DNA of 64,000 bases, from contig OZ025216.1 of assembly GCA_964019055.1 (NCBI GenBank), forward strand, positions 2,421,001 through 2,485,000, given 5' to 3'. Source of the DNA: Anthopleura xanthogrammica (lineage: Eukaryota; Cnidaria; Anthozoa; Actiniaria; Actiniidae). Position 1 is the first letter of the stretch. Every line of letters begins with the position of its first letter. The translations under genes and the position numbers were made by a program. The notes beneath the pieces were generated by a model. The model did not search any database, had not been told where the DNA came from, and saw nothing but the letters and a program-made list of their open reading frames with translations. This document shows positions 10,801 through 64,000 of this stretch, one piece after another.

Positions 10801-10804
10801 CCAT
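1..10804 (-). CDS. RLR-A: DED + TRADD-N-like + RIG-I-like helicase (3' part outside window)
   Basis: RIG-I-like receptor on the minus strand, about 667 N-terminal residues visible. Exons in transcript order: 10501-10804, 8951-8974, 8812-8829, 7954-7971, 6933-7307, 6337-6501, 5849-5971, 5231-5353, 4205-4366, 3634-3983, 2388-2585, 1922-2064; every phase joins. The ATG at 10804 opens a death effector domain (residues about 1-100, six-helix pattern ending LEERSVIG...IEEFE). Three micro-exons lead to a TRADD-N-like exon (residues about 122-246; GSVVFVLKV...[10 protein letters not shown]). A charged linker follows, then Hel1 with Walker A PNSGKT (K near 424), DECH (near 520-523) and motif III LTAS, then the start of Hel2i. 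The rest of Hel2 and the RNA-binding C-terminal domain are off the left edge. The Hel2i exon ends LLR plus a split codon instead of the paralogs' LRRY and is 9 nt shorter, so its 3' boundary is the least certain. Known RLRs sense cytosolic viral RNA. Confidence 0.8.
2690..3530. mobile_element. SINE-like fragment split by a fold-back element
   Basis: Sequence at about 2700-2745 (GGAAAACCGGAGAACCCG) and about 3452-3520 (AAAAACCCTCGATTCAAGGG) are the two halves of a stretch that is continuous in the SINE at 52508-52803. Between them lies an imperfect inverted repeat with arms near 2783-2880 and 3320-3423; both arms contain a TTTCTGAAAGCTAAA block. This looks like a roughly 700-bp fold-back element inserted into an older SINE copy, all within an RLR-A intron. 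Exact ends and target duplication are not resolved. Confidence 0.55.
4438..4850. repeat. 23-bp tandem repeat in RLR-A intron
   Basis: About 17-18 near-identical copies of a 23-base unit containing GAATGATGATGACACT. Because 23 is not a multiple of 3, all three frames stay open over long stretches, which explains the apparent overlapping minus-strand open frames. It lies in the intron between the linker exon 5231-5353 and the Walker A exon 4205-4366. Confidence 0.9.
6115..6256. mobile_element. Palindromic MITE, TTTTCCCATT family (RLR-A intron)
   Basis: Inverted ends TTTTCCCATTACAGACCAC and GTTTGAAATGGGAAAA, with an internal CAAACAAAGAATCTTATTCTC block shared almost exactly with the copy at 50754-50898. 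A third, diverged copy is at about 45166-45290. No transposase is encoded. Confidence 0.65.
7441..7650. mobile_element. Two adjacent copies of a GGAGGACAAAAC palindromic repeat
   Basis: A CCCTTGCAGCACGT...TCAATTTGGAGGACAAAAC arm occurs at about 7441-7490 and again at about 7575-7630, with the inverted arm TTTTGTCCTCCAAATTGA at about 7529-7548. The same family recurs at 42566-42680, and a diverged form is at 50921-51058. It lies in the RLR-A intron between the TRADD-N exon and the last micro-exon. Confidence 0.6.
8975..10500. other. RLR-A first intron, with palindrome at 9522-9668
   Basis: The intron between the DED exon and the first micro-exon. It contains an inverted repeat (about 9522-9668) with arms AACACTTATTGA...TGTGTTTTGTGGTCCC, ending with the reverse complement TCAATAAGTGTTTTG. 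It also contains one of three copies of a dispersed repeat at 10078-10190 (ACTAGTCTTTTATATTTTCTAATCTTAG). No further coding sequence was recognised. Confidence 0.6.
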
Positions 10805-11126
10805 GTTTGCAAACGTCTGCAAACGCTTCACGGCGACCGACGGCGACCGACTTTCAAAAGTTCGTGGCCGCCCACAGGTAGCCCAATCGTAGAATTAGTG
10901 GGTTGTGACGTCATTAGCTTCGGTGAGTGATCTATTCAAATTTCATATGGTTTGAAAATATGCTTTCAGAAAGACTTAAATTATTTAATGCTTTTGAATA
11001 AAGTCTCTACAAATGTTGTTTGATAGTTGAGGAACACTTTGGCGATGAAATATTGGCATGCCATGAAATTGTGTTTTTTAAGAATTGTAAACTTCTCTCT
11101 GTGGAATATTCTTGCTTGGTGTGCAG

Positions 11127-22900: not shown

Positions 22901-22921
22901 CCGTTTGCAGATGTAATTACG

Positions 22922-22976
<55 letters not shown>

Positions 22977-41995: not shown

Positions 41996-43822
41996 GTTTG
42001 CAAACGCTTCACGACGACCGACTTTCAAAAGTCATCCCCCATCCAAGGTCGTGGCCGCCATTTTCTATATTTAGGTACTTCGCGGAAATCACACAGGAAG
42101 ACCATAAGTCGTAAAACGATCGTAAATCACAGGCAGCCCAAACCGCGTTGTAAAACAATAATTTAAGACTTTTTAGTCTGTGTGTTTTCTTAATCAGCTT
42201 GCCCCTTCTTAAATTTAAGGGGTCGGGAGAGGCAATATTTGACTGACCACGCATTCGTTCTCGTACGCAGACCCTACTCATTAGACAAATCATCACCCCC
42301 TGATTAGGAGGGCGGGTAATCTTAGAGTTACGCGCTTCCAGGTTCGAGTTACGCGCATCGAGCTACGCGCTTTTTGAGTAAGGCGCTCGGACACACCCGA
42401 AATGGTCTTTGCCACACCCAGCGCGTAACTTGATGTGACTAAGAAATTTTAGTGAGTTCGAGTTACGCGATGGGTGCATAACTCAAACACAGCAATATCC
42501 TCTCAAAAACTCGATGTGCGTAACTCGAAGAGCGTAACTCGAAGATTACCCGATCCCCCTGATTAGACCGCTTGCAGCACTTCAGAATGCCGCTCAATTT
42601 GGAGGACAAAACAGAAGATTGAAATTCTTTTGTTTTGTCCTCCAAATAGAGCTGCTTTGACGTCCCTGAAAGGGTTCTATAGGGACGTCGGAGCACTTTT
42701 TAAGTGGGGAGCTATAGTATGCAAATAAGAGGGGGTAAGTGGGGGGGTCGTTAAGATTAGAAAATTTAAAAGACTAGTATGGAAAAGTTAAAAAAATGGA
42801 GGGGGGGGGGGGGGGGGGTCATACGTCCCTGGTCTATAGCTGTTACTAAAGTTGAGCCCGGAAAGAGATATTTTTGTTTGTTTTAAGAATATTCATAGAA
42901 GTGAGGCATCTGGTCGTTACAATGCCTGTTTTGCATGCACCCGTAATAGCTGCTATTACCGTAGTCCCGCCCCCGATTAAGCGCTGCATGAGAAAAAAAA
43001 TATCAGAGTCGAGCACCGCCGCAAATAAGGGCTTCACCGAATAAGCGCCGCAACCGAAATACTTAAATTTAAAGAGCGCCGCGGCGCTTAATCGAGTAGA
43101 TACGGTAGTTTTACAAGTGCTGATCATGACAATACTATTAACTGATTAATCAAAATAATAAAATGTCACAAACAATAAAATGTCACTTGTCAGACCCATC
43201 CACACTCTCTATGACAAACAGTCTCCGAGCTTATCTTTTGGCCGTGTTTTAACACATTTTAATTTCTAAAATTTTCATTTAAAATTATGAAACAACCTCT
43301 GGGAAGATCTTTTTCAGAGCATGGTTAACTTGAGACACTTTGTACCCGGTACCGATCGGAACGAGTTTCATAATTAGTAAGATAAGATTGGTCTTCCAAA
43401 CAATAAAACTAAACCTAACGATATTGGTTCTGTATTACTGTTTGAACTAGAAAGGTACATAAAACAATTGCTGCAACCATTTTTTATCCAAAAATGTTAA
43501 TTTATCAATAGCAGATATCAGAGTTACATTCCATTGCGCATGCACTGCCTTCAGACACTTGCTTTAAGTCGTGACATTTGGGTCAGTTTCAATACATTTA
43601 CTCTATTGTTGACCACCCAAATGCCTCGACTTGAAACAATTGTTTAAAGGTCATGCAATGGAGAGTAACTCTGATAACTGTTATTTGCTTGTATTGTAGT
43701 AAAGCCATCGTGAGCCACGTTGTACCAGACAATCGCGCATGGTGCAGGTGCATTTTAAACATCATTTTTCTCATCTACACAATGAGATGAAGAGAATTCC
43801 GAATATATTAAAACTTATTTCC
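41996..43822. other. Intergenic region between RLR-B and RLR-C
   Basis: About 1.8 kb holding the RLR-B 5' side and the RLR-C 3' flank. It contains the CGAGTTACGC element (42313-42552), a GGAGGACAAAAC palindrome (42566-42680), a copy of the three-copy dispersed repeat with G-runs (42690-42832), and a 3' flank homologous to that of RLR-B (from about 43250). No core promoter motif was identified with confidence. Confidence 0.6.
42313..42552. mobile_element. 240-bp element rich in GAGTTACGCG motifs
   Basis: Ends CGGGTAATCTTAGAGTTACG and CGTAACTCGAAGATTACCCG are inverted. At least six direct or inverted copies of a GAGTTACGC-like decamer lie inside. The flanks share CCCCCTGATTAG on both sides, separated from the inverted ends by a few bases, which may be a long target duplication or a small flanking repeat. 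Confidence 0.55.
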
Positions 43823-46800
43823 TTAATTATCATCATCTTCAGCTTGTATAATTTCCTCCAAGGTAGCTTCACATATCTTGAATGGCAGGTCCTTCCACTT
43901 TTTGAAGAGCTTTCTTACTTTTCCATGGTTGAGTGTTGTCACCAAACTAACGACCTTCAGACACGGCCATTCTGTTCCTTCAACTGTTATGATAACTCCC
44001 CAATCATGGCCACATTTCTTACAAAAAATCTAAGGGGAAAATGACGTTATCTTAATTACAACGTTATATTTCATTACATTGTAAATAACGTTAATGCCCC
44101 CCCCCCCCCCCCCCAAGAAAGGTAGACAGGCAGACCAGCAGACAGTAATCTTATTTATACTTGAAATATACACTGACCCCGAAACTCGTATGCGATTGAC
44201 TGTATTCGAGGTACATAAGAACATAAATGAATATAGATATAATTATGGCGAAGAAAACAAAAACAAACGTGACAAAAACCGGCCGAAAAACTAAGGGCCC
44301 TGTTACACTGTGCAATTTTCCCAGCAGAATTGCACAGTGTATAACAGCCAGCTGAGTTGACCTTGAGAACAAACTCAAGGTCAAACAATCAGAATTGAGG
44401 ATTCAACATCATATTTTGATTAGCATTTCCCATTATTCTGCTAAAAGAATTTATGAAATACGAGTTCTTCCTTCTTTAAATTAATCGTAAACGCTAGTCG
44501 AACTCGTGGCGGAATTTTATTTCAATCAACAAGAAAAGTCTACATTGTATACTCAGAAAATGCTAACCAAAAGTAGTGACCCATAGTTTCTTTCGGGGAA
44601 GGCGATCAACTCAGTTGGAGGGGTTTTCTCGCAATTTATTGTTGTTGCACAAGTAGAACTCAGTTCTACTTTTCGCAACACATTGCAGCAACTGGCAACG
44701 CCATTGCACAGTGTATCACCCCTCCAGTAACTTGTCTCGCAATTTTAAGTCATATTTTTCAAGTCGTTGCAAGTTGTTGAGATTAAGTTGCATGGTAACA
44801 TGGTAATACCTAGGCAATGAACAATTACCATTTTAAAACCTAATTGATAATTACCTTTTTACCAAAATAAATGCCATCGAAAGTATTTGGTTTTTCGTGT
44901 GGTTTGATGTCAATCCTTTCATATATTTCCTTGTTGATAACCACGTGATGGGCCTCTTTAAACCTACGAATGTCTTGAGCATTACAAACCAATGCGTTAC
45001 ACTTCCTGCAGTAAAACGCAACACTTTGGTCGACGACAAATTGGAGTTGAGACTTCTTTTTTTCTTCAAGCTGTTGTTTCTTCTTCACAATACGTACACT
45101 GCTGTTTTGAAGCAATTCAATCTGTCAGAAAGAAACCATAATTAATAGACTGCTTTAGCTTCGTATGGAAATTGCTCATTTCAGACCACATGACATTCCC
45201 TTGAGAAATGCTCTTTTATTAAAATATTTACACATGAAAGAATCAACTCCCAAAAGTGGCCGGCATCACATGGTCTGAAATGGGCACAACAAACAACGAA
45301 GCTAACGAGGTCTACTCATTTGTAATGACTGAACAAAGATTCCGTTTTTTTAAAAATTTTAATATCATTTTACCTTCTTCAAAAATTCTTCTTTTTTCAT
45401 ATTCTGGGCATCTTGGACAGCAAGTCTCATTAGCATTTCTCTGTACTCGTTTCGTTTTTCATGCTCAGCCCCCCTTGACTTGGCGTCACTCAGATGTACA
45501 TAACCACCCTCTTCAGCCCTGATACGGCCACGTGACTGTACGAAAGATATCTCATTTCCCTTCACTCCATAGCGAATCACATAGTTACATTTAGGGATAT
45601 CCAGTCCTTCTTCTGCAACGGTTGTTGCAATGATGATGTTGACTTTGCCTTCCTTAAAATCATTGATGACTTGTTCTTGTTGGCTTTGCGTTAACGCAGC
45701 TGTTGTAGAATTTGAAAAGATATTTTTTTCTCTCATTTACTCATTGGTTTACGTAAAAAATATATGTCATGCATTAAATAATCTTCCTCGTGGAAGGTAG
45801 AAAATAGCGAGTCCAGTAAGAGGGCTTAAGGATGCAATTTCAGCCCCCTGCATGCATCCCTCCCTAGGGACATTTTTGAAACGTCTTTAGTGTCCAGGGC
45901 TCCTATGGATACCAGCTGTGTGCTGAATGGGTTACCCTCTTGAAATAAAATTCATCTATCTATGGTAAAATAAGCCGCTGGAAGATGAGTCAAACAAACT
46001 ACGCTGCCCTTACCACTTCCAAGCAAGACCCGAGGTATTAACATTTCCTTGAGCTCTTCAGTTTCTTCCATCCATCTCTTTAGTGCGTGTGCGTAATCCC
46101 TCGTGCGAGTGAATAAGATTCCTATGGCTTGGCATTCCTTTGGGGCTTTTTCATGAAAACCTTTTATTTGCTCCTGTAGTTTTTTAAGCAATGGGTTTTC
46201 TGGCATACCAGCTTCTTGGGTGTGCTTTTCGATTCGCTCCTTCGTTTTGAGAAACAAGTCTTGCAACCTTGATTCAGTTTCATTGAATTTTGATTTGTCG
46301 AGGCCATTGAAGTACTCGTCCAGATAAAGAATGGCGTCTTCTGTTCTAACATTGCTGTTGATTAGCAGAGCCTCGTGATAACTACGAAATAAACAAAAAA
46401 CTCTTGATGACCATACGATAACACCAATTCGTTTCGTGACACTACAGATATCCATCCATGACCACCACTACCACATCTACCATGACCACCACTACCATGA
46501 CAACCACTACCATGACAACCACTACCATGACCACCACTACCATGACCACCACTACCATGACCACCACTACCATGACCACCACTACCATGACCACCACTAC
46601 CATGACCACCACCACCATGACCACCACTACCATGACAACCACTACCATGACCACCACCGCCACTACCACCACCACCACTACCATGACCACATCTACCATG
46701 ACAAACACTACCATGACCACCACTACCATGACCACCACTACCATGACCACCACCACCATGACCACCACTACCATGACAACCACTACCATGACCACCACCG

Positions 46801-49800
46801 CCACTACCACCACCACCACCACTACCACAACCACTACCATGACCACCACCACCACCACCATGACCACCACCACTACCATGACCACCACCACCACCATGAC
46901 CACCACCACTACCATGACCACCACCACCACCATGACCATCACCACTACCATGACCACCACCACCACTACCATGAGCGCCACTACCATGACCACCACTACT
47001 ATGACCACCATCGCTATTACCACCACTACCATGATCACCAAAATATATATAAGGATATATACCGTCTGAGTCGTTGTGCATATATAAAATGATTGCTGTT
47101 TTCCAACTTGGTAGCATCACTTTCGATTGCTTCAATCCACTGACGATAACTCTCAACTTCACGGTTCGTTGTTTGGGGAGGTTGTTTTATGAAGTTTTCG
47201 ATTTCTTCCATATTCTAATTTAGGAAACAAAACGTTTCTAAGAAAGATAACAAGATAAGGATGCCAACCACGATTTCAAGTGTCTTTCCTCCCACCATCG
47301 AACAGAAAACAATTTGGAACGTGCAATACCTTATTTATCTCCTGCTCAAAGATGTCAGGTTCCCTGCTAACTTGTACTCTCTTACATTCAAGCATATTAT
47401 CACCAGTAGTTTTCTGGAGTTCCTCTGAGTTTTTGCAGACAGTACTTATGTTAGAAGCGTCCAAGTTTGCGCACATGCGAAGGACGTGCTCCTTTGCCTT
47501 TTCTTCTTTGCTCGATTGTCCAACACCAAGAGAAGCGGTAAGACCAATGACCTGAAATGAAGCAATTATTGGACAATAGATGTTAGTACAGTTGCGAGCA
47601 AGCGATTATTTTCCGATGCCGAAGGCAGAATTATTGTTGCGAGACACTAACAAATAACAATATTTTGTGATAACCGACTTCAATAATTGTTTTATCATTC
47701 AAATTATTTTTTGTGTTCAGGCTGTTTTTGCTGTCTATCAAACATGCCAAGTCAATTTTCTGACAGCTCAGGGAAGCGAGCCATCATTTGACAAATGCAA
47801 CGTTACTGTGCATGAGTGGACAGCTCAGTTGGCACCGTAATGCGCATGAGCAGATCATTATTTGTAGGCCGATATTTGTAGTTATCTTGGCCAATCAAAA
47901 CGAAAGAAAAAATAATTTTCATGATAATAACAGGTATTTTTAAAAGCCATTTCAATGTTACAGCATTTCATACCGTGTACTAGCTGTATCAGTACCGTAT
48001 GTTACCCACTGATACGATAACCATTCTTATGGGAAGCCATTTGAATGTTACGGCATGTCGTACCGTGTACTAGCTGTATCAGTACAGTACGTTACCCACT
48101 TATACGATAGCCATTCTTATAGGAAGCCATTTGAATGTTACGGCATGTCGTACCGTGTACGTATTGTAGGTCAGTACCGTATGTTTCCCACTCAAACGAA
48201 AACCTTATTGCCACACTATCAATGTCTATAAGGGAACTACCAGTTATAACCGAATAACTAAAATTATAATTACCTGTGGAAGTGTTTTAGGCTCGCTTGA
48301 ACCATTCAATTTCAATTTCAAATATTCTAACATAATCTGGTTGTAAGGGTGGTCCTTGTTGGCATGGTGACATTCATCAAACACAAGAAGTGATATATCG
48401 CTGATACTGACTTTCTTTTCTTTCACGGCGTTCACTAGAATCTGTGCAGTCAACACAACGATGTCATTCTCTTGTAGCAGTATCTCAAGAGGGACATACT
48501 GGGTCTCTGAACCGGCTCCAGTTATATCCGCTGTGCTGTAGTTCGTTAGATATTCCTCGAAACGTCCTTTTTGTTGAAGCACCAAGTTTTGTTTGTCAAC
48601 GATGAAGGCCACCTTGGGTTCTTTACCCTTGTTCTCTATACAGCAAGAAAAATGTTATAAAAATCATTTCAAAACCCTAACACTTCCTAATTCTCCAGAA
48701 CCCAGTCCTCTGTTGGTCAGGGTTAGTCTCGATTTTATGTAGAATATTCATGTGTTCCAGTGAAGGTCCGTGGAATTTCAAAGTGTTTGTATTGTTGAAG
48801 TTTGGCATTCTTTACTTTACCGTTGGTATTTGTGAATATTTTGACACTAAAGTGAGGCTTACCCTGAGTAAATGAATTTGTCTTTTAGGATGTATTTCAG
48901 ATGAAAATATACATTTTATCATGATCAATTTTTGCACTGTTTCGCCATTTAAGCATCATTTTGCACATCACTTTGCTGCTGTGATGCTCATTTAATCAAC
49001 ACATTATCATCATCTGAGGCACAAATATTGCTTTATATTTCTGAGACCCAAGTATCTCTGGATGTTGTGCTTTTTTTGGCGATTTGCACCAACATCTAGG
49101 AAACTACGGAAATGCAAAAAAACTGGATGTAACCCATGCACACTCTTTCATTTACCTTCCTTGCTATCTTTGTAAGCATCAAGGTGTCTTTTTGCAATCT
49201 CCATAGCAACGAAGGTCTTGCCACTGTTGGTTGGTGCACAGATGATGGTGTTCTTGCCTTCCAGGGCAGGTGCTGCAAGCTCTTTCTGGTACTCACGAAG
49301 CTGGAGTTTACGGCTGAGATTGTAGTTGTCATCATCTAGATAGACTGGTCAATTTGAAATGACACAAAATAATGATAGTTAGGATAACAGCTGGTTGATA
49401 TACTATAAAATACTCCTGTCATACTACTAAGTAATAGATAAGAAAGAAATATAGAAAGAAAGAACGAAAGATAGATAGAAAGAAAGAACGAAAAAAAGAG
49501 AAAGAAAAAAAGTTCAAAAGGAAGGAAGGAAGGAAAGAAGTGAACGAACGATAAAATGAAAAAAGAAAGTACCAGTCCTTGCTTTATCTTTATTTTAAAC
49601 CAATACTTTCCTCCAGTCTAATCTTATACAAAACAAAGTTATTTTCCATAAACTTTAGAGATCTTTACTACCTTTCCGTCGAGGAATTCTCGTAGGCAAG
49701 GATACTTTCTTGGGTTCGGTTACCATGGCTTCGGTTTCCATGGCTTCATCAACGACAACATCTACAAAAATACAATTACAGTGAACATAGTTGGTGAGAT

Positions 49801-52800
49801 ATTTGTGTGGTATAGCATTATATAGACCATTGATTTTGAAACAGAATGGTCAAAACAATGTGTGCATTGACGAGGCGACAATACGAAAGTAGAACGTGAT
49901 CATGGTTATTTCACGTCGCGCGCCCGCCACTACAGTAGAGGAGAGCACTGGAAAAGTGGTGTAACGCGTTTTCTCAGAGCTTTTATCCTTTTGTTTGCTA
50001 TTAGAAAGTAAAACTGCATTTCGTAAAAAGTGGCACCAATCGTAAGCATTCCTTTAAAATTCTGCTCAACACTTAGCTATGCTAGATAACTTTCTTACCG
50101 GCTTCAGCAGAAGTCCCAGGTTCTTCTACGGTCTCACTGTCTGGATAAAAAAAAAAAGATAAATATCTTGGAGTTTACTCGACGTTACTTCTCATATACT
50201 TATTGTTTCAATATAGGATAGCCATGCAAACAGCAAGGTAAGTATGGTAGTCAAAGATAGTCACATTATTAGCATAATGTAATTAGGATGGTAAAGGGTG
50301 TCATTTCAACACTTTACCAATGAAATTACCTTCATTGAAAATGCGCTTGATTGCCTTATAATCCTTCTCCTGGAAGGCTATTTTTAAAACCAAATCCTCT
50401 TCTTTCTCTCCATCTTGTCTTTCTGCTAGGACTTTGGGTAGTAGGTGCTTTTTCAAAAGCACCTCAAGCGTTTTTTCTTTGTATAAGCTCCATATTTTGT
50501 CAAGATGCTCAGCCTTCTTTGCAACTCGAAAAATGAGGTGAACGCCACCACGGGGATTGCTAGACATCTTGATGCGGGCAAAATAGACTCCCGTTGGCAA
50601 TTCCTCAAACACAAAAAAGTGAATAATTTGATTTCATATTCTAAGTTTGGCAAAAGCAGTTTCTATAAAATTACATGTACTCTTTATCTGGAAGTTCACT
50701 ATCTGTTCAAGTGTTCTACTGGCAAGGTAGACCTCTTTATCTTGGGCGTAATGTTTTCCCATTTCAGACCACGTGTCATTCCCTAGAGTATCATTTCTTT
50801 GTTTAACGGTTCCGCATGAGAAGACACATGAACATGGATACAACTCAAACAAAGAATCTTATTCTCAAGAGAATGACACGTGGTCTGAAATGGGAAAACA
50901 TTTCACCCAAGCTGGAGAGGTCTATAGAACCCTTGCACTAATTCCCAACCTGGGGGACAAAACGATGTAAAACATTGACATAGGATTTCAATCCTCAAGA
51001 GAAGGCAGTTCTTTTGTTTTGACCCCCAGGTTGGGAATTAGTGCAAAAGGTCTATTAGAGAAAGTTCGCAGGGAAACAAAATATATAAGGAAAATTGTGA
51101 AGAATAGGGACACAAGAATGGGAATATCAGCTCTTATAACTGAATGTGATGTTTTGGTACTAGCCCTTACCTCCTCAAAAATGCTTCTCAACTCCTTGAG
51201 TTCAGAAGAACGGCTATTTTCAAATAATGTAGCAATTTTCCTTTCCAAATGCGGCTGTCTTTCATCCTCTTTTTCTTCGTCGTCATCCTTGCACCTCAAA
51301 ATGTGGACTGTACCACGAATATCTGAAAAAAGACATTAAAAAATTCTAAGCGCAAGAGATTTGAATGTAAAGAAAGATAAAATTATCTATTAAGGCTGTT
51401 TCGAAACCAGCTTAAGGTCCGTTTACATGCACTAGCGATTTTTGAAAATATAATAAATTTGTTCAGTTAATCTTGGTGTCCGACATAAAACTTTACAAGT
51501 TAATCCTTTACTATTCTTGACCATGACCAAAATCGCCGCAAAAATCGCACCTCAAATCGCAGGAAAAATCGCCCGTGTAAACAAGCCTTTATCTAGGGCC
51601 TTTTATACCCGGGGCCCCCGGGCTTTTATATTTTACTTGCCAGCAACTCGGGCTTGCTTGTAAAAAATATAACTAGATTCTTCTTCATCAGATTTTTCTC
51701 CTTTGTCATCATCATCATTGCCTGCCGGAGAGGGAGAAAAAAGGATGGTCACTCCAAGGTTAAAAAAGAAATAAAACAAAAAACTACAAAATACAGTGCT
51801 TGTTTTTTTTTTTTTTTTTTTACAGTTTTGGTTAACGGTTTTAAACTAACCAGAATCGCCATCTAGTAGTACTGCTACGCTACCGAGACCAGCTTTACGC
51901 AGGGCACGTAGGAACTGCTTGAAGCCTTCTTCATATTCTTCTAGTTTTTCCACCAGTGTTTTTACAGCCTTTGAATTAAGGTAGTTTTTTTCATCGTATG
52001 ATATATCATTTTTCTGTTCGTCAGTCAAACATGGCAGGTTGTCCAATAGCTCAGTAGCCTTGAAATCATTTTGGAAATGACGAATATTTTCCTGAAGAAA
52101 TTGCCGATGATCTTCTTTCATCTGTAGACGCTAAAAGGCGATTAAAATCAGATAAAATGGCCAATTAAAATCACCTACTACTCTATCAAAGCACAGTAAT
52201 TAAAACAACAACAACAACAACAACAACAACACAACTAAAATAAATGCATACCCTGAGTTTGGAAGCTTTCGGTTCATTTGTCTTTCTTTCTGTGCTTAAG
52301 GATTCAACTAAAAGAAAAAATTGAATAGAAAAAAGGATATTGAATTTTCTTAACAGTGACAGAAACCAAATAACTATGGAGGGCATATCCAGGTGAGGAG
52401 GGTGTTGAATACTGTGTTGTCGAATCCCTAGGTGCTTTCGCCCTGGATGTTCAATCAGACAGAGGAAAATCAGGAAATAATTTGTCCTTGATTCAAAATT
52501 TTATTTAATGATGATGATGATTTAAATTTAAATTTATTTATGCCACTTTACCACTCTGGGGTGGACGGAAAGCCTTACAGGTCTAGGACCCAATTACAAG
52601 GCAACCGATAGATCGAATTAGAATTTGAAAGGTGATTTTTGCGGAGGGAGGAAAACCGGAGAACCCGGAGAAAAACCCTCGAAGCAAAGGAGAGAACCAA
52701 CAAACAACTCTACTCACATACGACACCGAGCCCAGAGAGGCTCGAACCCTGGTCGCATTGGTGAGAGGCGAGCGCTCTCACCGCTACGCCACCTGTGCTT

Positions 52801-55800
52801 CCCTAAATGATGGCGGTGGTGGTAGTGGTGGCAGTGGAGAAGGTGGATTCATGATAATGACAATGGTGGTGGTGGTCATGGGGAAGATGGTGATGATGAT
52901 GGTAACGGTGGAGAAGGTGGATTCATGATAATGACGATGGTGGTGGTGGTCATGGGGAAGATGGTGATGATGATGGTAACGGTGGAGAAGGGGGATTCAT
53001 GATAATGACGATGGTGGTGGTGGTCATGGGGAAGATGGTGATGATGATGGTAACGGTGGAGATAGTGGATTCATGATAATGACGGTGGTGGTGGTGGTCA
53101 TGGGGAAGATGGTGATGATGATGGTAACGGTGGAGAAGGTGGATTCATGATAATGACGATGGTGGTGGTGGTCATGGGGAAGATGGTGATGATGATAACA
53201 GTGGAGAAGGTGGATTCATGATAATGACGATGGTGGTGGTGGTCATGGGGAAGATGGTGATGATGATGGTAACGGTGGAGAAGGTGGATTCATGATGACG
53301 ATGGTGGTGGTGGTCATGGGGAAGATGGTGATGATGATGGTAACGGTGGAGATGGTGGATTCATGATGACGATGGTGGTGGTGGTCATGGGGAAGATGGT
53401 GACGATGATGGTAATGGTGGAGAAGGTGGATTCATGATAATGACGATGGTGGTGGTGGTCATGGGGAAGATGGTGATGATGATGGTAACGGTGGAGAAGG
53501 TGGATTCATGATAATGACGATGGTGGTGGTGGTCATGGGGAAGATGGTGATGATGATGGTAACGGTGGAGAAGGTGGATTCATGATAATGACGATGGTGG
53601 TGGTGGTCATGGGGAAGTTGGTGATGATGATGGTAACGGTGGAGAAGGTGGATTCATGATAATGACAATGGTGGTGGTGGTCATGGGGAATGGTGATGAT
53701 GATAGTAACGGTGGAGAAGGTGGATTCATGATAATGACGATGGTGGTGGTGGTCATGGGGAATGGTGATGATGATGGTAACGGTGGAGAAGGTGGATCAT
53801 GATAATGACGATGGTGGTGGTGGTCATGGGGAAGATGGTGATGATGATGGTAACGGTGGAGAAGGTGGATTCATGATAATGACGATGGTGGTGGTGGTCA
53901 TGGGGAAGATGGTGATGATGATGGTAACGGTGGAGATGGTGGATTCATGATAATGACGATGGTGGTGGTGGTCATGGGGAAGATGGTGATGATGGTAACG
54001 GTGGAGAAGGTGGATTCATGATAATGACGATGGTGGTGGTGGTCATGGGGAAGATGGTGATGATGATGGTAACGGTGGAGAAGGTGGATTCATGATAATG
54101 ACGATGGTGGTGGTGGTCATGGGGAAGATGGTGATGATGATGGTAACGGTGGAGAAGGGGGATTCATGATAATGACGATGGTGGTGGTGGTCATGGGGAA
54201 GATGGTGATGATGATGGTAACGGTGGAGATAGTGGATTCATGATAATGACGGTGGTGGTGGTGGTCATGGGGAAGATGGTGATGATGATGGTAACGGTGG
54301 AGAAGGTGGATTCATGATAATGACGATGGTGGTGGTGGTTGGTGTTGATAGTGGAAATGGTGATGATGGTGGTAATGGTGGAGATAGTGGATTGATGGTG
54401 GTGATGATGATAACGGTGGAGAAGGTGGATTCATGATAATGACGATGGTGGTGGTGGTTGGTGTTGATAGTGGAAATGGTGATGATGGTGGTAATGGTGG
54501 AGATAGTGGATTGATGGTGGTGATGATGATAACAGCAGTGGAGATAGTGGATTGATGGTGGTGATGATTGTCAGGTGGTGGTGATGGTGATGATAATGAT
54601 GGTGATGACAATGACGAGGTTTGAAAATGGAGAAAATCAATGTCGTATTTTGGACAGATGGGTGCTGTTCCTGTGGATTGAGTTTTAAAAAAATTATCCT
54701 TTTCTTTCCCTTACCTTTTTCTGTTATTTTTGATAGTTCACCCATAACTTCTTTGTGTCGTTCTTTAGCATTTTCTTCCGCTAAAGACATAAAATTTGAT
54801 TATTTCAAATATAAGCTCATATTCTTCAGTTGCACATGACGTCATAGAGGCCATCTTGGTTGAATTTAACAGGACCTAATTGTCAATTAATTATTTTGTC
54901 ATGACAACCAACATGATATGGTCGCCATGTCTTTTGTTTTTTCTCTCCCTTGGGAATTGAAAACCAGCAATAGTTGTATCCCCCCCAAAAAAATTTTTCA
55001 TGGTGAACAAATCCACTCCCACACTGCAAACTGTCTTCCACTGCATTCAATATTCTATGCATGCATCCAACTCTCAACTCATATATTAGTTTTTGCTGTT
55101 GAGAAGAGGAAAACTTGAGAATCCAGAGAAAATCCCCTTCGCAATTTAGCCTCCTTTGAAGGTGTTCTTTGTGTCAGTCCCCTGTGTTGTCCCTCCCCAC
55201 TAAACACATTAGCGGGGAAAGATAAGGGGACTGATACAAAGAATGTCTCAGTAAATTAAAGGAGGCTATACCTAAAGTTTGCAAGGGAGAGAACAGTTAA
55301 CAAGTCAAATTCATGTAATTCCATCACATTAACATCTCCAGGAATTGAGCCAGCTAGCAAACCGCGCAAACCATATGGTTCTCATGGGGTGAAAGGTGAA
55401 TATTTTAATATATTTATGTTTTCTAACTGCTGTCTGCTTTAAAGAGCAGTCAAAATCACTTACAATCAATAACAACTTTAAGTATTTCATCTTCCATTTT
55501 ACAGCACTCCTTCAGAATAGGATACAAAATGTCAACTGGCTTCTTTATATCTGAAAAAATTAGAAAACATTATTTACCGCAATCCCAATATTCAACAATT
55601 GTATGTAAATGTATGCATCTTGGAAACTGAGAATTAAGATTTCATCTTAGCTTGCTTTCAAAAAAAACCCGAACTGTATGTAGTAATATATATTTCAATT
55701 GCATGCCATATCGATCATTATTATATAACATCTATATATATATGAATATCAGCTAGTGTTCTATATTTTCATCAGGGACGTAGGAGTCGGGGGGAGGGGG

Positions 55801-58169
55801 GCTTTTTTTACCTTTTCCACACTAGTCTTCTAAATTTTCTAATCTTAGCCCCCCTCTTTTTCCCTCTAATTTGCATACTAGCCCCAGCCCACTTTAAAAT
55901 GTGCTCCGATGTCCGGCCCTGCATGTTCATAGGTAAAGCAAAGCCACCCTATATTAAATATGTGTATCCATATAACTGTAAAGCATACAAATTTGTCAGA
56001 ATGATTACAGGGGCAGATCTAGGAGAGGGGTGTAGGAGGTGCGCTGAGCCTCCCTAGGTCAACTTTAATTTGAAGATAACCAACACAAAATAGTACTTTC
56101 ATCCTTTGATTATAAGGGTTGTATCCCACAGTTTTTTCTTAGATTGTTTATTTTTTTTCCAGGGAGATGGGTACCCCCTGCACAATGCTGCACCCCTCCC
56201 TGAACAAAACTCTGGATCTGTCCCTGCAATCTGAAATGGCAAAACATACCTTCTAATTAGAAAATATTTTGTTCTTTTTGATTTGCCAATAGTCCCCTTC
56301 ACTGCCCTGCGTCATCTTGAAAGGTGGCTGCATCAAAGTGAGACGAACGGTGAGCTTGCAATATATGACAGAGACCTATTTTCGGACAATTATTCACATG
56401 TGTCTATCATTGCAAGCTCACTACTTGTGTTGCTTCAATGCAAAAGCCCAGCTACTTTTCAGAATGGCGCAGAGAACTGTACATGTGAAGGGGACTATTC
56501 ATAAGGGTTTCTTCATAAGTATAAATTCCATTATGCAGTGATACAGTATGGATAACAGCTAGTACCTTCTTCTACAGCATCAAATTCTTCTTGAGTTGCA
56601 TTGAATTTTTCCAGTGCTTTGCAAGCATTTTGCCATTCTGTTTTAAACTTTGTATTTGATATCCTAGCATCTGGTGCATGGCCAATCAGCGTGTTACGGA
56701 TATCTTTCATCTCTTTCAATGCTTTAGTTTCTACTGGACTTAAAACAGCACTATAGGGTCTAGATAACAGCACCAAACTTAAAAGGGAAAAATCCCAGTC
56801 ATTTGTGCTACGAGAATCAAATTGCTTTTCTTGTTTTTTAAACTGGAATTTTAGTTTTAGAATTGTTTTCAGTGTAGCAGCATCCGATGGTTTGTCATCC
56901 CAAGGTGTAGTAGGCAGGGTACCATTTGCATTTTGGTGTACTGTTGGCCATTGTGACTTCAAACACTCCCTGAGCTTGGAATTCCCGAGACGAAACAAAA
57001 GCAATGTCAAACTAAAAAAATTGTCTCTGCAAAAAAAAAAAAAAAAAAGGTAAGAAGAAGAAAAGAAAGAAAGACATTTTTGTTATTTTTGAGGAAAATT
57101 TAAGTTTGCAGGGATCAGAAGACAAGAAAATTAATATTCTCCTTACAGCCACCTTTCAAAGCTGTATGCATGAGAAGGCAGCTAGCACAAGCAAGACATA
57201 CTGATCCCCACCCCTTTTTATTTGTTTTTATTTATTTATTTATTTTATTTTTTCTGTCTGACCCACCCATGTGAGACCCAGGGTGACGGGAAATGAAAAC
57301 AAATATGAGGATGGCCATACAGGTATGAGTATAAAAAATTCATCATTCTTAATTTTCTTTTACAGTGAGGATCGACACTCAAACCGTGAACACTTTGAGG
57401 TTTTTTCATACTTTTTTCCTCCTTTATCCCTTGTGTGAATCGATTGGAAATATGATTTATTTTGACGATAAGATTATTTGAGTTCAGTGCTTCATTTTCA
57501 GAAGGTTTGAAGCAGTAGAAAGTTCATAAAATAAAAAATATATAAATATCAAGTGTTCATGGTTCGAGTGTCCTCACTGTAAAACTGTATAAAAAAAATG
57601 CTCCCTTCAATTAGAAATATGATCAAAATATGTTTGCTTTGATTAACAGCGAAACTACCCTCTCCCCCTCACTATCCAAAACTGCATTAAAACTGCATTA
57701 AATTTTTTTTAAATTTTTTTAATTTTATTTAACTTCGTCTTTTAAAACAAAATCAGTGATCAGTTTGGTAGATTGGTAACTGGGAGGAAAAAATGAAAAA
57801 AATGAAAACAAGAAATAGTGAATTGAATGGCGGGGACGCCACAACAGCTTTCGCCAATTACTGTGGGCCCTTAAACAACTACTATTATAGTTACATATGA
57901 TATTATGTTATAAGTTTTCGAAAAAGAAAAAAAATAGAAAAAAAAGATCATGTCAAGTGTCTATGAATGGAACATCTAAATGGACAATGTAATAGACAAC
58001 ATGAGTGGTGTTTTCAGTCAGTAGATGGTTTTCCAGATGTCGAGGTCTTCAAGCAATTATATGTTTCGGTTTTGACTGACATAAACTTATATATGCAAGA
58101 ACCACTATAAGAATAAATTACACACCTCTCCTCGCAATCTTTTTCAGCATCCGCTGAAGTAGCCATCAT
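43823..58169 (-). CDS. RLR-C: HEPN + CARD + TRADD-N-like + RIG-I-like helicase + CTD
   Basis: Complete 19-exon gene, about 1224 aa. Exons: 58126-58169, 56566-57026, 55464-55550, 54715-54780, 52252-52307, 51851-52121, 51674-51721, 51171-51322, 50330-50603, 50099-50140, 49672-49761, 49156-49335, 48274-48635, 47330-47551, 47063-47214, 46014-46381, 45374-45699, 44855-45121, 43823-44029. All phases join. A DZIP3-type HEPN domain (about 15-168) carries RNTLIGH (R125-x5-H131). A CARD (about 239-328; FLQENI...[12 protein letters not shown]) and a TRADD-N-like domain (about 345-486; GGVHLIFRV...WSLYKE) follow. The helicase has PTNSGKT (K near 570), DECH 677-680, LTAS, and motif VI QSRGRIR (1013-1019). 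The C-terminal domain has Zn pairs YCRKC and FCKKC. It is predicted to be an active cytosolic RNA sensor. The weakest exon is 51674-51721 (donor GTTATA). Two adjacent genes instead of one is possible but less likely given the phase continuity. Confidence 0.82.
46452..47040. repeat. ACCACTACCATG minisatellite in RLR-C Hel2i intron
   Basis: About 590 bp of ACC/ACT/ATG triplets, the same motif class as in RLR-B, in the equivalent intron between exons 47063-47214 and 46014-46381. The apparent His-, Thr- and Val-rich open frames on both strands are products of the repeat. Confidence 0.95.
49441..49570. repeat. GAAA-rich purine tract
   Basis: Imperfect (GAAA)n/(GGAA)n on the plus strand, intronic in RLR-C upstream of the Walker A exon. 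Pure purine over more than 100 bases, so it could form triplex-type structure. Confidence 0.85.
50754..50898. mobile_element. 145-bp MITE, TTTTCCCATTTCAGACCACG ends
   Basis: The terminal inverted repeat is about 29 bp (TTTTCCCATTTCAGACCACG, then TGTCATTCC) around a CAAACAAAGAATC core. It is the same family as the copy at 6115-6256 and is better preserved. It lies in the RLR-C intron directly before the TRADD-N exon. Confidence 0.75.
50921..51058. mobile_element. 138-bp palindromic MITE with CTAATTCCCAACCTGGGGG arms
   Basis: Left CCTTGCACTAATTCCCAACC and right GGTTGGGAATTAGTGCAAAA are near-perfect inverse arms flanked by GGTCTAT. It is related to the GGAGGACAAAAC family at 7441-7650 and 42566-42680. 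Intronic in RLR-C. Confidence 0.7.
52508..52803 (-). mobile_element. tRNA-derived SINE (RLR-C intron)
   Basis: The minus-strand head at about 52803 has A-box-like GTGGCGTAGCGGTGAGAGC and B-box GGTTCGAGCC, then a body and an (ATC)n-type tail at 52508-52523. The same body sequence is split in the RLR-A copy at 2690-3530. It is not a functional tRNA. Confidence 0.75.
52806..54600. repeat. About 75-bp minisatellite, over 20 copies, in RLR-C intron
   Basis: A roughly 75-base unit (GTGGATTCATGATAATGACG, GGTGGTGGTGGTCATGGGGA, GATGGTGATGATGATGG and so on) repeats through 1.8 kb with small indels. The last 300 bp shift to a shorter variant (GGTGTTGATAGTGGAAATGG). It sits in the intron between the coding exons 54715-54780 and 52252-52307. 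The open frames across it are repeat artefacts. Confidence 0.95.
55147..55268. mobile_element. 122-bp MITE related to the 7.46-kb transposon
   Basis: Ends TAGCCTCCTTTGAAGG and TTAAAGGAGGCTA. The left half matches the transposon's terminal repeat in the same order: TAG-C/T-CTCCTTTG, then TGT-C-A/G-GTC, then TCCCTCCCCACTAA. It is therefore probably a non-autonomous derivative of the same family. No clear 9-bp duplication is visible. It lies in an RLR-C intron. Confidence 0.65.
55780..55925. repeat. Copy of a three-copy dispersed repeat
   Basis: Contains CACTAGTCTTCTAAATTTTC...TCTAATCTTAGCCCCCCTC and AATGTGCTCCGATGTCC. Inverse or direct copies occur at 10078-10190 and 42690-42832, each with C/G-rich runs. 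Noncoding and intronic or intergenic in the RLR array. Confidence 0.55.
56291..56496. mobile_element. 206-bp MITE with AGTCCCCTTCA ends
   Basis: Inverted AGTCCCCTTCAC / GTGAAGGGGACT ends with inner GAACGGTGAGCTTGCAAT-type arms. The start of another copy (AGTCCCCTTCACAGTTCCCT) runs off the right edge at 63941-64000, and a partial relative lies at about 8480-8575. It lies in RLR-C's second coding intron. Confidence 0.7.
57240..58125. other. First coding intron of RLR-C
   Basis: AT-rich noncoding sequence between the start exon (58126-58169) and the HEPN exon. It contains a repeated TTTGATTCGATCCTCACTGTAAAA-like pair at about 57357-57385 and 57560-57590, inverted around a short unique stretch, and poly-T/poly-A runs. 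No gene was recognised. Confidence 0.5.
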
Positions 58170-59978: not shown

Positions 59979-62900
59979 TCAATTTGATTTCACCGTTTCA
60001 GACTCCATCAACCGCCTTCGTACATCATTCAACTCCTCCACTTCAGCTTTGGGAATCGTGAATGAAACATCCTTCCACTGTTTGAAAAGAAGTCTCTTCT
60101 TCGTATCGTTGAACTCGGTTATAAAACTTTTAATTTTCAAACTTGGCCAATCTGAACCTGTTACGGTGATGACGATACCCCAATCAAAGTCACACTTTTT
60201 ACAATGAATCTAAAAGCAGAAAAACAGAGAATTAACTTTTTTTGGAAAATATGAATGAAAAGGCGTGCATACGTACGTAAGAACGGACGGACGGACGGAT
60301 GCACTTGAAGAACGAACGAATGAACGTACGAAAGAACGAACAAGAAAACGAACGAGCAAACGAACCAACGAAAGAACGAAAGAATAAACAAACATTCATA
60401 CAAACAAGCAAACAAGCAAACAAACAAACGAACGAACGAACGAACGTATGTAAACACAAGCGATACCATGAATGAACTGAATGGACGAATCAAAACCAAT
60501 GAATAAACAAAGAACCTGAAAGAGCTCGCATTTCCACCAACATACCTTTTTATTAACAGTAACCTCATCTACTTGTCTTGGATTCGTGTGCTGCTTTATG
60601 TCACTACGTTCATAGATGCTGGGATCCATAACCACACGATAGTCCCCTTTAAACAAACGCATATCCTGGGCGTGGCAGACCAGTTTGTTGCAGCCCTTGC
60701 AATAAAACGTGACACCACCTGCGATGTCTTGGATGACGGGTTTGGAAGCATCTATATCTTCTCTTGCTTCACGTGCACTGATACTTCGAATTTGAAGACT
60801 TTTTATCTGTGATATGTGATTTTATGATTGAGAATTTGAAAAAAAATGGAACTTAACTTGACTTAAAAATACATATAATTCCTAATTCAATACTGTCAGC
60901 ATTGATTCTACATGAAGTGAATAGTTGAATGGCGAATTATTTCTTGATTTGAGTGTATGCGCCCTTAATCTATAATGGATTATACTTTCAATATGTTAAT
61001 GACTGTGACATCAGTTTCCCTTCACTACCGTTTAATAATAATAATCTTTATTGCACATGTAATAATTAAATATGCTCCAAGAAAACTCTCTCACATTGGT
61101 GATTTTCAGAGAGGTCCTGGAATTTACTTAAAATGAAATAAAAGGAAAAAATAGGACAATATATTAAAATAGAAAATAAATAAAAATAATAAAAATAAAT
61201 TAGGCTAATGTATAAAAAGCTAAAATTTGTAAAATATATTGTAAAAAGAATATATGAATTTGTGAAGCTAACTAAAGATATTGCGTTTGAAGACTTGAAC
61301 ACTACTAGAGTTCCTTAATTCTTGACTTAGGATCTGTGTGTAAGCCCAGAGGTTGTTTCAAGGTTTGATCTGTGAGTTAGCCGTGTCCTGACTTTAATCA
61401 GCCCAGAGGTTGTTTCAGGGTTCTGTCTGTGAGTTAGCTGTGCCCTGACTTATATCAGTCCAGAAGTTGTTCCAGGGTTTGATCTGTGAGTTAGCCGTGC
61501 CCTGACTTAGATCAGCCCAGAGGTTGTTCCATAAAATTGATTACCTCGTTAGCAAACTCTTCTTGATCCATATCCCGTACTTCTTCAACAACAGAATTCA
61601 TCATTTTCTCTTTAAATTCGTTCATTAACTCATGGTCAGCGCCTCTTGATCTCGAGTCTCCTATATAAACATAGTTGCCCTCTTTGGCCCTGATACGACC
61701 ACGGGATTGTACGCTGGAGATTTCGTTCGTCTTGACGCAGTAACGAATGACGTAGCAACAATCAGAGATGTCCAATCCTTCTTCTGCTACAGTTGTGGCA
61801 ATGATGATATTGATATCACCATTTTTGAATTTTTTGATGACACTTTCTTGTTGGGACTGGGTTAAACCAACTGTGAAGTGATGAAAAATAGTTAAAGATC
61901 GAACAAGCTTTTGAAGAACGGAGAGAGGGAGGGAGGGAGGGAGGGAGGGAGGAAGGGAGGGGGAATGGGGAGGGGGGGGGGGGGGGAGGAGGAAAGGAAG
62001 TGGAATTTGGAAGTGGAATTTGAAGACTTACTCTCCGAATCACCAGAACCCACTAAAATATCAGGCTTTAAAATCTCATTAAGCTCTTTCGTCTCATTGA
62101 CCCATTTCCTCAAAGCGACAATGTCATATCTTGTTTGAGCAAATAAAATCCCTTTAGCGCCTGATTCTTTTTCCTTCTCGTGGAAGACAATTATCTGTTT
62201 CCTGAGGGTTTCCAGTAAAGGATTTTCTGGAGCTTCTTGTTTGTGTTTCTCAATCAGTTGCTTGGTCTTTTGGTAAAGATTTTGAAGCCAAGAGCCAGTT
62301 TCAGTCAATTTGGACTGATCGCGTTTGGCGTAGAACTTTTCCAGGTACGTCATTGCGTCATCGATTCTGACAACGTTGTTGATAAGAAGAGCTTCGTGGT
62401 AACTATTGAGTAATAATAATAATATCTCATTATCATTGTCATCGTTGTTTATCATAATCATGTCCTCACATCAATATCGTCAATATGATGTATGTACCTT
62501 TCAATCGCTATAATGATCATAAGTAGTCATTGGTCATCACTATTCTGGTGCCACCACAACCACTACTATTCAACAACTAACACCACCACCACCACCGCCA
62601 CCACCACCACTATTCAACAACTAACACCACCACCATCACTATTCAACAACTAACACCACCACCACCATCACTATTCAACAACTAACACCACCACCACCAT
62701 CACTATTCAACAACTAACACCACCATCACTATTCAACAACTAACACCACCACTACCATCACTATTCAACAGCTAACACCACCATCACCATCACTATTCAA
62801 CAACTAACACCAACATCACTATTCAACAACTAACACCACCACCACCATCACTATTCAACAACTAACACCACCACCACCATCACTATTCAACAACTAACAC

Positions 62901-64000
62901 CACCACTACCATCACTATTCAACAACTAACACCACCACCACCATCACTATTCAACAACTAACACCACCATCACTATTCAACAACTAACACCACCACCACC
63001 ATCACTATTCAACAACTAACACCACCACTACCTTCACTATTCAACAACTAACACCACCACCATCACTATTCAACAACTAACACCACCACCACCATCACTA
63101 TTCAACAACTAACACCACCACCACCATCACTATTCAACAACTAACACCACCACTACCATCACTATTCAACAACACCACCACTACCATCACTATTCAACAA
63201 CTAACACCACCACCACCATCACTATTCAACAACTAACACCACCACTACCATCACTATTCAACAACTAACACCACCACCACCATCACTATTCAACAACTAA
63301 CACCACCATCACTATTCAACAACTAACACCACCACCACCATCACTATTCAACAACTAACACCACCACTACCTTCACTATTCAACAACTAACACCACCACC
63401 ATCACTATTCAACAACTAACACCACCACCACCATCACTATTCAACAACTAACACCACCACCACCATCACTTTTCAACAACTAACACCACCACTACCATCA
63501 CTATTCAACAAATAACACCACCACCGCCACCACTATTTAACAACTAATACCACCACTAACACCTCCACCGTCACCATCGCCTCCACCTTTTCAGTTTTTT
63601 TTAGATAATATATTATGTAAAGTGTTGTTGGGCAAAACGGAAACAACGCTATATAAATAAATATCATACCTCCTCAGGTATTCTCCGCACAAAAAGTTGT
63701 TGCTATATTTTTGAATACTGGCATGTTGTGAAAGTTGTTCGATCCACTGACGATAACTTGTGATCTGTCGATCTGTGGTTGGAGGTGGGCAATACGTGCC
63801 TGTATCGTAAATAATGCCTTCAATCTCTTTCATTGCCTGCAGAAAATAGCACAAAGAAATTTTTATAAATTGGAATAGGATCATGTCAGTTGTCAACGGA
63901 AGGTTGTAGCATCTATTTCAGTTGCTTAACACCCCTGAAAAGTCCCCTTCACAGTTCCCTGCGCCATCTTGAAAGGTAGCCAGGCCTTGCATCGAAGCGA
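59979..64000 (-). CDS. RLR-D: RIG-I-like helicase C-terminal half + CTD (5' part outside window)
   Basis: Fourth paralog; the visible exons are 63670-63836 (Hel2i start, SYRQWIEQL...EYLRR), 62032-62402 (Hel2i, YHEALLINN...AQTRYDIVALRKWV), 61545-61870 (Hel2), 60546-60806 and 59979-60209 (C-terminal domain). They code for 451 residues in continuous phase, ending at a TGA. Motif V region [14 protein letters not shown] and motif VI QSRGRIR are intact. The C-terminal domain has zinc pairs YCKGC and HCKKC as in RIG-I/MDA5 regulatory domains. It is more diverged from A, B and C than those are from each other, for example Hel2i DDAMTYLEKFYAKRD. N-terminal domains and Hel1 lie beyond the right edge, so the class of signalling module is unknown. 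Confidence 0.88.
60275..60445. repeat. GAAC/AACG tetranucleotide-rich repeat
   Basis: Imperfect GAAC, GGAC, AAAC tetramers on the plus strand in the last intron of RLR-D. It gives rise to Arg/Phe/Ser-rich antisense frames (SFVRSFVR type) that are not genes. Confidence 0.85.
61340..61532. repeat. Three tandem copies of a ~62-bp unit
   Basis: Unit contains CCCAGAGGTTGTTTCAGGGT and TCTGTGAGTTAGCCGTGCCC, repeated three times with about 90% identity and ending at the RLR-D Hel2 exon donor. A single inverted copy of the same unit occurs at about 24312-24382 in RLR-B, so the unit is dispersed as well as tandem. Confidence 0.75.
61916..61997. repeat. GGGA repeat and poly-G run in RLR-D intron
   Basis: (GGGA)n leading into an 18-base G run, in a 161-bp intron between the two Hel2-side exons. 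The G-runs have quadruplex potential on the nontemplate side of the plus strand. Confidence 0.9.
62560..63590. repeat. ~30-bp minisatellite in RLR-D Hel2i intron
   Basis: More than 30 copies of a unit made of CACCACCACCATCACTATTC and AACAACTAA, with deletions of CAC triplets and higher-order blocks. It occupies the intron between 63670-63836 and 62032-62402, the same intron as the arrays in RLR-A, B and C. Confidence 0.95.
63941..64000. mobile_element. Start of an AGTCCCCTTCA MITE, cut by the window edge
   Basis: Matches the left end of the 56291-56496 element (AGTCCCCTTCAC, then CATCTTGAAAGGT). It continues off the window. It lies in or near an RLR-D intron. Confidence 0.6.

What the first reader, a model, noticed from the sequence alone, without database searches (positions are those of the whole stretch)
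43823..58169. RIG-I-like receptor with an N-terminal HEPN domain plus CARD and TRADD-N-like domain
Seen: nineteen exons join without a phase break into one 1224-residue frame. It begins with a DZIP3-type HEPN region carrying RNTLIGH, passes through a CARD-like exon and a TRADD-N-like region, and ends in a full DECH helicase and zinc CTD with intact motifs. Known: vertebrate RLRs have only two CARDs, and HEPN R-x4-6-H domains are often RNases. Inference: a single protein could couple RNA sensing to RNA cleavage and to death-fold signalling. I know of no described receptor with this exact order.
Basis: partly seen in the sequence, partly recalled or inferred. Interest (0 to 1): 0.88.

Follow-up and report, generated by a model that had tools for sequence, protein, structure and literature searches.

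The report
RNA sensor with RNase-like head
An invertebrate virus-RNA sensor of the MDA5/RIG-I family carries a probable RNA-cutting domain and a signalling domain at its front end, and two neighbouring copies share this build, so one protein may both detect viral RNA and cut RNA.

Summary
Helicase, CTD and CARD match Pfam clearly; the HEPN is borderline (24.1 bits in the whole protein, 27.4 in the N-terminal piece; cut-off 27) but profile-profile comparison with controls supports it. Twelve of 12 aligned sequences, this one included, keep R-N-x-L...H. The TRADD-N region has no direct Pfam match; it is supported through paralogues. The gene sits in an array of six RLR genes; a seventh lies 9 Mb away. 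Two neighbours repeat HEPN-linker-CARD-TRADD-N-helicase-CTD in order; one has linker and CARD in a single exon, which argues against two genes. Two others carry a DED-like head and damaged helicase motifs. The HEPN exon plus the next 87-nt exon also lies upstream of NACHT-LRR frames: probably a shuffled cassette. Kaur et al. 2021 already report TRADD-N fusions to RLRs and to HEPN in cnidarians, so this is a new variant. RNase activity and the full transcript are untested.

The parts
58126..58169 (-). exon 1; start, probably the second ATG
   Evidence: 44 nt, conserved in neighbour D with the same donor
56566..57026 (-). exon 2: HEPN domain (res 15-168), RNTLIGH at res 125-131
55464..55550 (-). 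exon 3: 87 nt, phase 1-1, travels with the HEPN exon
54715..54780 (-). exon 4: linker, coil-like by eye
52252..52307 (-). exon 5: linker; in neighbour A its counterpart is fused to the CARD exon
51851..52130 (-). exon 6: CARD (res 242-328); internal Met242
   Evidence: CARD_2 1.1e-12
51641..51721 (-). exon 7: acidic linker, GC donor
51171..51322 (-). exon 8: TRADD-N-like region, first part
50330..50603 (-). exon 9: TRADD-N-like region, main part
50099..50140 (-). exon 10: linker
49672..49761 (-). exon 11: linker
49156..49344 (-). exon 12: helicase motif I (APTNSGKT)
48274..48635 (-). exon 13: helicase motif II (DECH)
47330..47551 (-). exon 14: helicase motif III (LTAS)
47063..47214 (-). exon 15: helicase insert region
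46014..46381 (-). exon 16: helicase insert and start of second helicase lobe
45374..45699 (-). exon 17: helicase motifs V and VI
44855..45121 (-). exon 18: CTD, first CxxC
43823..44029 (-). exon 19: CTD, second CxxC, stop
41657..42031 (-). paralogue B: DED-like exon (open frame; splice ends not fixed)
   Evidence: DED 1.7e-6, 28.6 bits, below cut-off 35.9
36970..37308 (-). paralogue B: TRADD-like_N region
   Evidence: PF20694 2.2e-3, 18.2 bits, below cut-off 23.7
13985..33590 (-). paralogue B: helicase and CTD exons; motif I reads NNDKT, motif VI not found
10388..10894 (-). paralogue B': DED-like exon (open frame)
   Evidence: DED 8.6e-6, 26.4 bits, below cut-off 35.9
6934..7278 (-). paralogue B': TRADD-like_N region
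   Evidence: PF20694 1.6e-4, 21.9 vs cut-off 23.7
1889..4352 (-). paralogue B': first helicase exons; the rest lies left of the window
60030..63836 (-). paralogue D: last five exons (helicase, CTD); its HEPN-CARD head lies right of the window

Best explanation
One gene encodes an MDA5-type RIG-I-like receptor whose head is HEPN - 87-nt exon - linker - CARD - TRADD-N-like, followed by the usual helicase and zinc CTD. Shown from sequence: order, open frame, motifs, recurrence in two tandem neighbours, and the same HEPN-plus-87-nt exon pair upstream of NACHT-LRR frames. Inferred: the helicase/CTD binds cytosolic double-stranded RNA and multimerises on it as MDA5 does; crowding pairs the HEPN domains, which like other HEPN RNases would act as dimers through R-N...H and cut RNA; CARD and TRADD-N recruit CARD- or death-fold partners towards NF-kB or apoptosis. 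It would work like OAS-RNase L folded into one chain, with a signalling arm. The head arose by exon shuffling within a recombining RLR array and, probably, with NLR genes.
For: Frame and sites. Domains: (best PDB match MDA5, 406.8 bits). HEPN: hhalign 96.8% against eight DZIP3-type HEPNs of this genome, 60 column-shuffled controls at most 3.1%; R, N, L and H invariant in 12 of 12 aligned sequences, the window's own included; 11 of 12 match PF18738 at E<=1; dN/dS 0.47-0.52 between the three RLR copies. One gene: same order in D and A, same phases at the HEPN and 87-nt exons; linker and CARD in one exon in A. TRADD-N: 94.1% against four TRADD-like_N sequences, 60 controls at most 8.8%. Cassette: 87-nt phase 1-1 exon after HEPN in three NLR loci, NACHT-LRR frame in the one scanned.
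Against: No transcript data. HEPN below the Pfam cut-off in the whole protein and matched over its C-terminal half only; the window exon is absent from the 63 genome matches of PF18738. TRADD-N has no direct Pfam match; the genome search with PF20694 lists two loci, neither in the array; the focal sequence alone gives only 25.1%. The linker, residues 198-238, is only 32% identical to D and 22% to A. The one structure obtained is uninformative (pLDDT 41.6). The conserved CARD-exon Met allows a HEPN-less product. dN/dS near 0.5 is only moderate constraint. RNase activity, dsRNA binding and signalling are untested.
Confidence: 0.6

Rival explanations
1. Two products: a HEPN-headed long form and a short CARD-TRADD-N-RLR started at Met242 in the CARD exon, or two adjacent genes copied together.
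For: A Met at the start of the CARD is conserved in the focal gene, D and A, in Z and in the seventh RLR, as if the CARD exon was once a first exon. The linker is poorly conserved. Nematostella RLRs were once predicted as separate CARD and helicase genes (PMC2686710, passages).
Against: In A the linker and CARD share one exon, open upstream of that Met and resembling D's separate linker exon; acceptors lie just before the Met in the focal gene and D; linker exons 3-5 stay in frame.
Confidence: 0.25
2. The HEPN is a catalytically silent oligomerisation or RNA-binding module, and the receptor signals only through CARD and TRADD-N.
For: HEPN families that have lost the motif and are labelled inactive exist (PMC3710099, passages); only half of the profile aligns; no usable structure.
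Against: R, N and H are invariant in 12 of 12 aligned sequences; Anantharaman et al. list the motif as mostly conserved in DZIP3 HEPNs and predict RNase activity wherever it is kept.
Confidence: 0.4
3. Ordinary CARD-RLR; the HEPN exon is a stray neighbour joined by the reader's chain.
For: Published cnidarian RLRs are described as one CARD plus helicase (PMC8998645, passages); similar HEPN exons lie elsewhere in the genome.
Against: Three of the seven RLR genes found here carry the HEPN on the same strand, with matching phases at the HEPN and 87-nt exons.
Confidence: 0.08

Closest known systems
MDA5/RIG-I (vertebrate RLRs)
   Same: SF2 helicase with DECH and zinc CTD; best PDB match is MDA5; CARD upstream
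   Different: one CARD, not two; HEPN and TRADD-N-like regions added
Cnidarian C-type RLRs (NveRLRa/RLRb; PMC8476169, PMC8998645)
   Same: one CARD plus helicase plus CTD; Z and the seventh RLR here resemble this kind
   Different: no HEPN mentioned in either main text (0 occurrences)
DEDD2-clade TRADD-N fusions (Kaur et al. 2021, PMC8195603)
   Same: TRADD-N fused to RLR-like receptors and to HEPN in cnidarians; TRADD-N at the junction of constant and variable parts
   Different: the full HEPN-CARD-TRADD-N-RLR order is not stated in the passages and section read; source data not read
HEPN-NACHT receptors of anthozoans (Emery et al. 2021, PMC8260672)
   Same: in this genome the same kind of HEPN exon and following 87-nt exon lie upstream of NACHT-LRR frames
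   Different: NACHT-LRR instead of helicase-CTD
RNase L / OAS pathway (pathway recalled; RNase L as a HEPN RNase in PMC3710099)
   Same: double-stranded RNA leading to a HEPN-type RNase is the inferred logic
   Different: sensor and RNase on one chain, no 2-5A messenger; not tested
Lophotrochozoan RLRs with grafted N-termini (PMC8998645)
   Same: N-terminal domain grafting in tandem RLR arrays; DED heads
   Different: 'HEPN' does not occur in that main text

Membership tests
RIG-I-like receptor | SF2 helicase with RIG-I-type insert and intact motifs | tested here: met
RIG-I-like receptor | RIG-I_C-RD zinc C-terminal domain | tested here: met
   2.3e-31; two CxxC pairs
RIG-I-like receptor | N-terminal CARD | tested here: met
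   CARD_2 1.1e-12; one CARD only
RIG-I-like receptor | binds dsRNA and signals | not testable with these tools
   needs assays
HEPN, DZIP3 type | profile match over the curated cut-off | tested here: inconclusive
   24.1 bits whole protein, 27.4 N-terminal piece, cut-off 27; not among 63 genome matches
HEPN, DZIP3 type | profile-profile relation to DZIP3-type HEPNs | tested here: met
   96.8%, 60 controls at most 3.1%; 62 columns of the C-terminal half only
HEPN, DZIP3 type | Rx4-6H active-site motif | tested here: met
   RNTLIGH; 12 of 12 aligned sequences keep R, N, H
HEPN, DZIP3 type | four-helix fold | tested here: inconclusive
   helical model, pLDDT 41.6
TRADD-N domain | direct profile match | tested here: not met
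   no TRADD family for the focal region; genome search lists two loci, none in the array
TRADD-N domain | profile-profile relation to TRADD-like_N sequences | tested here: met
   of the four reference sequences, two (B, B') are below the Pfam cut-off and two loci are over it
TRADD-N domain | RRM-like fold | not tested
   the structure job was never accepted

The most novel reading that the evidence does not exclude
A single-chain sensor-effector: an MDA5-like receptor that, when multimerised on viral dsRNA, switches on its own HEPN RNase while its CARD/TRADD-N arm signals; and a HEPN exon cassette that moves between the NLR and RLR families, with a tandem array swapping HEPN-CARD, CARD and DED heads on one helicase chassis, some with disabled helicases as decoys.
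Probability: 0.4. Interest if true: 0.82.

Novelty: new variant of a known kind. Interest (0 to 1): 0.64.

Why it matters
Vertebrates split dsRNA sensing (MDA5, OAS) from RNA cutting (RNase L) (recalled). A receptor holding both would show a shorter circuit and, if this animal is a cnidarian (not tested), suggest how animals in which Emery et al. note the absence of MAVS could act on viral RNA. The array gives natural head swaps on related helicases, so head function can be compared directly. The HEPN E-values obtained here (3.5e-5 for the whole focal protein; 7.3e-4 and 8.1e-5 for the head pieces of D and A) miss the 10^-4.9 domain cut-off of the Emery survey, though the focal N-terminal piece alone (3.2e-6) would pass; such receptors could have been overlooked.

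Full report
What was checked. I located each exon by its splice sites and joined them. Every junction keeps frame; acceptors of exons 2-19 are AG, donors GT except exon 7, which has a GC donor. In the right-hand neighbour D the first exon is also 44 nt with the same donor, and its second codon is ATG while its first is GTG, so translation probably starts at Met2.

Domains. Pfam finds helicase lobes, the RIG-I insert region, the RIG-I C-terminal domain and one CARD with strong scores. The closest solved structures are MDA5 (406.8 bits), then RIG-I (380.8) and LGP2 (357.4). Helicase motifs and the two zinc CxxC pairs are present. HEPN_DZIP3 scores 24.1 bits in the whole protein and 27.4 in the N-terminal piece against a cut-off of 27, over the C-terminal part of the profile only. 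A genome search with the same family lists 63 matches but not this exon.

Is it really a HEPN? A genome search with the N-terminal 238 residues gave 33 matches, three of them the window's own exons. I aligned the 12 for which loci were held, the window exon among them: R, N, L and H of R-N-x-L-(x)-x-H are invariant in 12 of 12, eight with five residues between R and H and four with four. Eleven of 12 match PF18738 at E<=1, best 7.6e-7. Against eight of the 63 DZIP3-type HEPNs of the same genome hhalign gives 96.8%; reversed alignments give under 1% and 60 column-shuffled controls at most 3.1%. By eye, both groups also share an invariant Asp in a W/F-D-x-S/T-L segment upstream, which may be the acidic helix-2 residue described for HEPN RNases (PMC3710099, passages). 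Pairwise dN/dS of the HEPN exon is 0.52 (focal-D), 0.47 (focal-A) and 0.49 (D-A). A single-sequence AlphaFold model is helical but of low confidence (pLDDT 41.6).

One gene or two? The window is C11:2421001-2485000 of a 290-Mb, 125-contig genome. Exon-by-exon searches of 157 kb around it show six RLR genes in a row on the same strand. D and A have HEPN, the following 87-nt exon, linker, CARD, TRADD-N-like region, helicase and CTD in the same order, with the same phases at the HEPN exon, the 87-nt exon and the end of the CARD exon. Read directly, D has a linker exon 5 (HLTRKAIEEINKPKSPEIR) and then a separate CARD exon; in A the matching stretch (QLTRSLFKELLEDQSSRH) runs on into the CARD within one exon. 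This is hard to reconcile with a gene boundary between HEPN and CARD. Two points weigh the other way: the linker (residues 198-238) is only 32% and 22% identical to D and A, and a Met at the start of the CARD is conserved in all three, so a second start is not excluded.

The TRADD-N region. Pfam finds nothing for it directly. In paralogues B and B' the same position before the helicase holds TRADD-like_N at E 2.2e-3 and 1.6e-4, both below cut-off, after an exon matching DED at 1.7e-6 and 8.6e-6, also below cut-off. A genome search with TRADD-like_N lists two loci over the cut-off, neither in the array. Profile comparison of the focal, D and A regions with those four sequences gives 92.8%, 60 shuffled controls at most 1.3%; with Z and the seventh RLR added, 94.1%, 60 controls at most 8.8%. 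The focal sequence alone gives 25.1%, and Z plus the seventh alone 28.2%, so the case rests on the family, not on one sequence.

The array. A genome search with RIG-I_C-RD gives 12 matches, which fall into seven genes: six in this array of about 112 kb and one at C11:11.88 Mb (the tool calls such counts lower bounds). Heads: HEPN-CARD-TRADD-N in focal, D and A; DED-TRADD-N in B and B'; CARD followed by a TRADD-N-like stretch in Z and in the seventh gene. B has NNDKT for motif I and no recognisable motif VI; B' has a changed motif VI. The helicase of the focal gene groups with B and B' (support 99/97) rather than with the HEPN-headed D and A. At DNA level its last exon and 3' flank are 96.4% identical to B, while its first exon with upstream flank matches D at 69.8%. 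So head and tail seem to have different histories within the array. The models used for the tree were guided by the focal protein, and the B model takes in a retrotransposon-like stretch, so the tree is rough; the DNA comparison does not depend on it.

The cassette. Five loci on C18 and C6 carry the closest HEPN exons outside the array (52-55% identical to the focal exon). In three of the five the next exon is again 87 nt with phase 1-1, in the fourth the aligner ended it at 91 nt, and the fifth was read only to the end of the HEPN exon. At L031, the one locus scanned with Pfam, a NACHT-LRR frame (2.1e-28) follows on the same strand; similar long frames lie near the other four. That these belong to one gene with the HEPN is inferred. 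In the HEPN tree focal and D pair (100/99), and A falls outside a group that includes the NLR copies (94/90, just under the program's star), so a single capture is not required and exchange between the families is possible.

Mechanism. Shown: anatomy, motif conservation, recurrence. Inferred from family knowledge: MDA5-like multimerisation on dsRNA, HEPN pairing and RNA cleavage, CARD/TRADD-N recruitment. Nematostella RLRb binds long dsRNA and poly(I:C) induces apoptosis there (PMC11251625, passages), and Emery et al. note the absence of MAVS in cnidarians (PMC8260672, passages). A HEPN arm would give a direct effect on RNA without a known adaptor. Whether this HEPN cuts RNA is open.

Compared with print. 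Kaur et al. 2021 (PMC8195603; passages and section 11) report DEDD2-clade TRADD-N domains of cnidarians and brachiopods fused to HEPN RNases and to RLR-like receptors, and place TRADD-N at the junction of constant and variable parts, as seen here. A 58-species RLR survey names CARD, DED, Death, IG, SAM and caspase heads, and 'HEPN' does not occur in its main text (PMC8998645, passages). Emery et al. report HEPN-NACHT fusions as common in anthozoans. Six literature searches (2 of 2, 15 of 24, 1 of 2, 14 of 15, 3 of 4 and 10 of 26 papers listed) returned no paper whose listing or read passages state HEPN-CARD-TRADD-N-RLR; supplementary files could not be read. Hence: new variant of a known kind.

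Noticed in passing
window 13985-42031 and 1889-10894 (on to C11:2408356): Two DED-TRADD-N-RLR paralogues with damaged ATPase motifs (NNDKT; motif VI lost or changed): decoys, LGP2-like regulators or decaying genes.
   Followed up: partly
L022:6880-7140 (C11:2495280-2495540, + strand): A CARD_2 exon (6.9e-21) divergent from gene D, with no helicase exon found on that strand in the 157 kb searched; a stand-alone CARD protein here could be an adaptor.
   Followed up: partly
window about 59420-59540, + strand: A short copy of the start of that divergent CARD exon, which soon departs from it and runs into a stop; it lies upstream of the focal gene, suggesting that the duplicated unit included the CARD gene.
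   Followed up: partly
window 43592-44032 vs C11:2434753: Last exon and 3' flank 96.4% identical to paralogue B while other exons differ more: recent exchange between array genes.
   Followed up: partly
window 52834-54339 and 46456-47040: A 74-bp minisatellite of about 20 copies in intron 4 and a simple-repeat tract in intron 15 of the focal gene.
   Followed up: no
window 52526-52803: tRNA-Val call inside intron 4; the stretch has a 95.3% copy in gene A and further copies in the array, so probably a tRNA-derived SINE.
   Followed up: no
window 50728-50926: A short repeat in intron 8 present many times along the array in both orientations.
   Followed up: no
C2, C9, C20 of G000: Clusters of DZIP3-HEPN in long open frames (12 of the 63 rows over 1100 aa), apparently a large HEPN gene family.
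   Followed up: no
window 15643-15847, - strand: A stretch inside paralogue B's CTD region that looks like retrotransposon coding sequence (recalled, not searched), fitting the idea that B is decaying.
   Followed up: no
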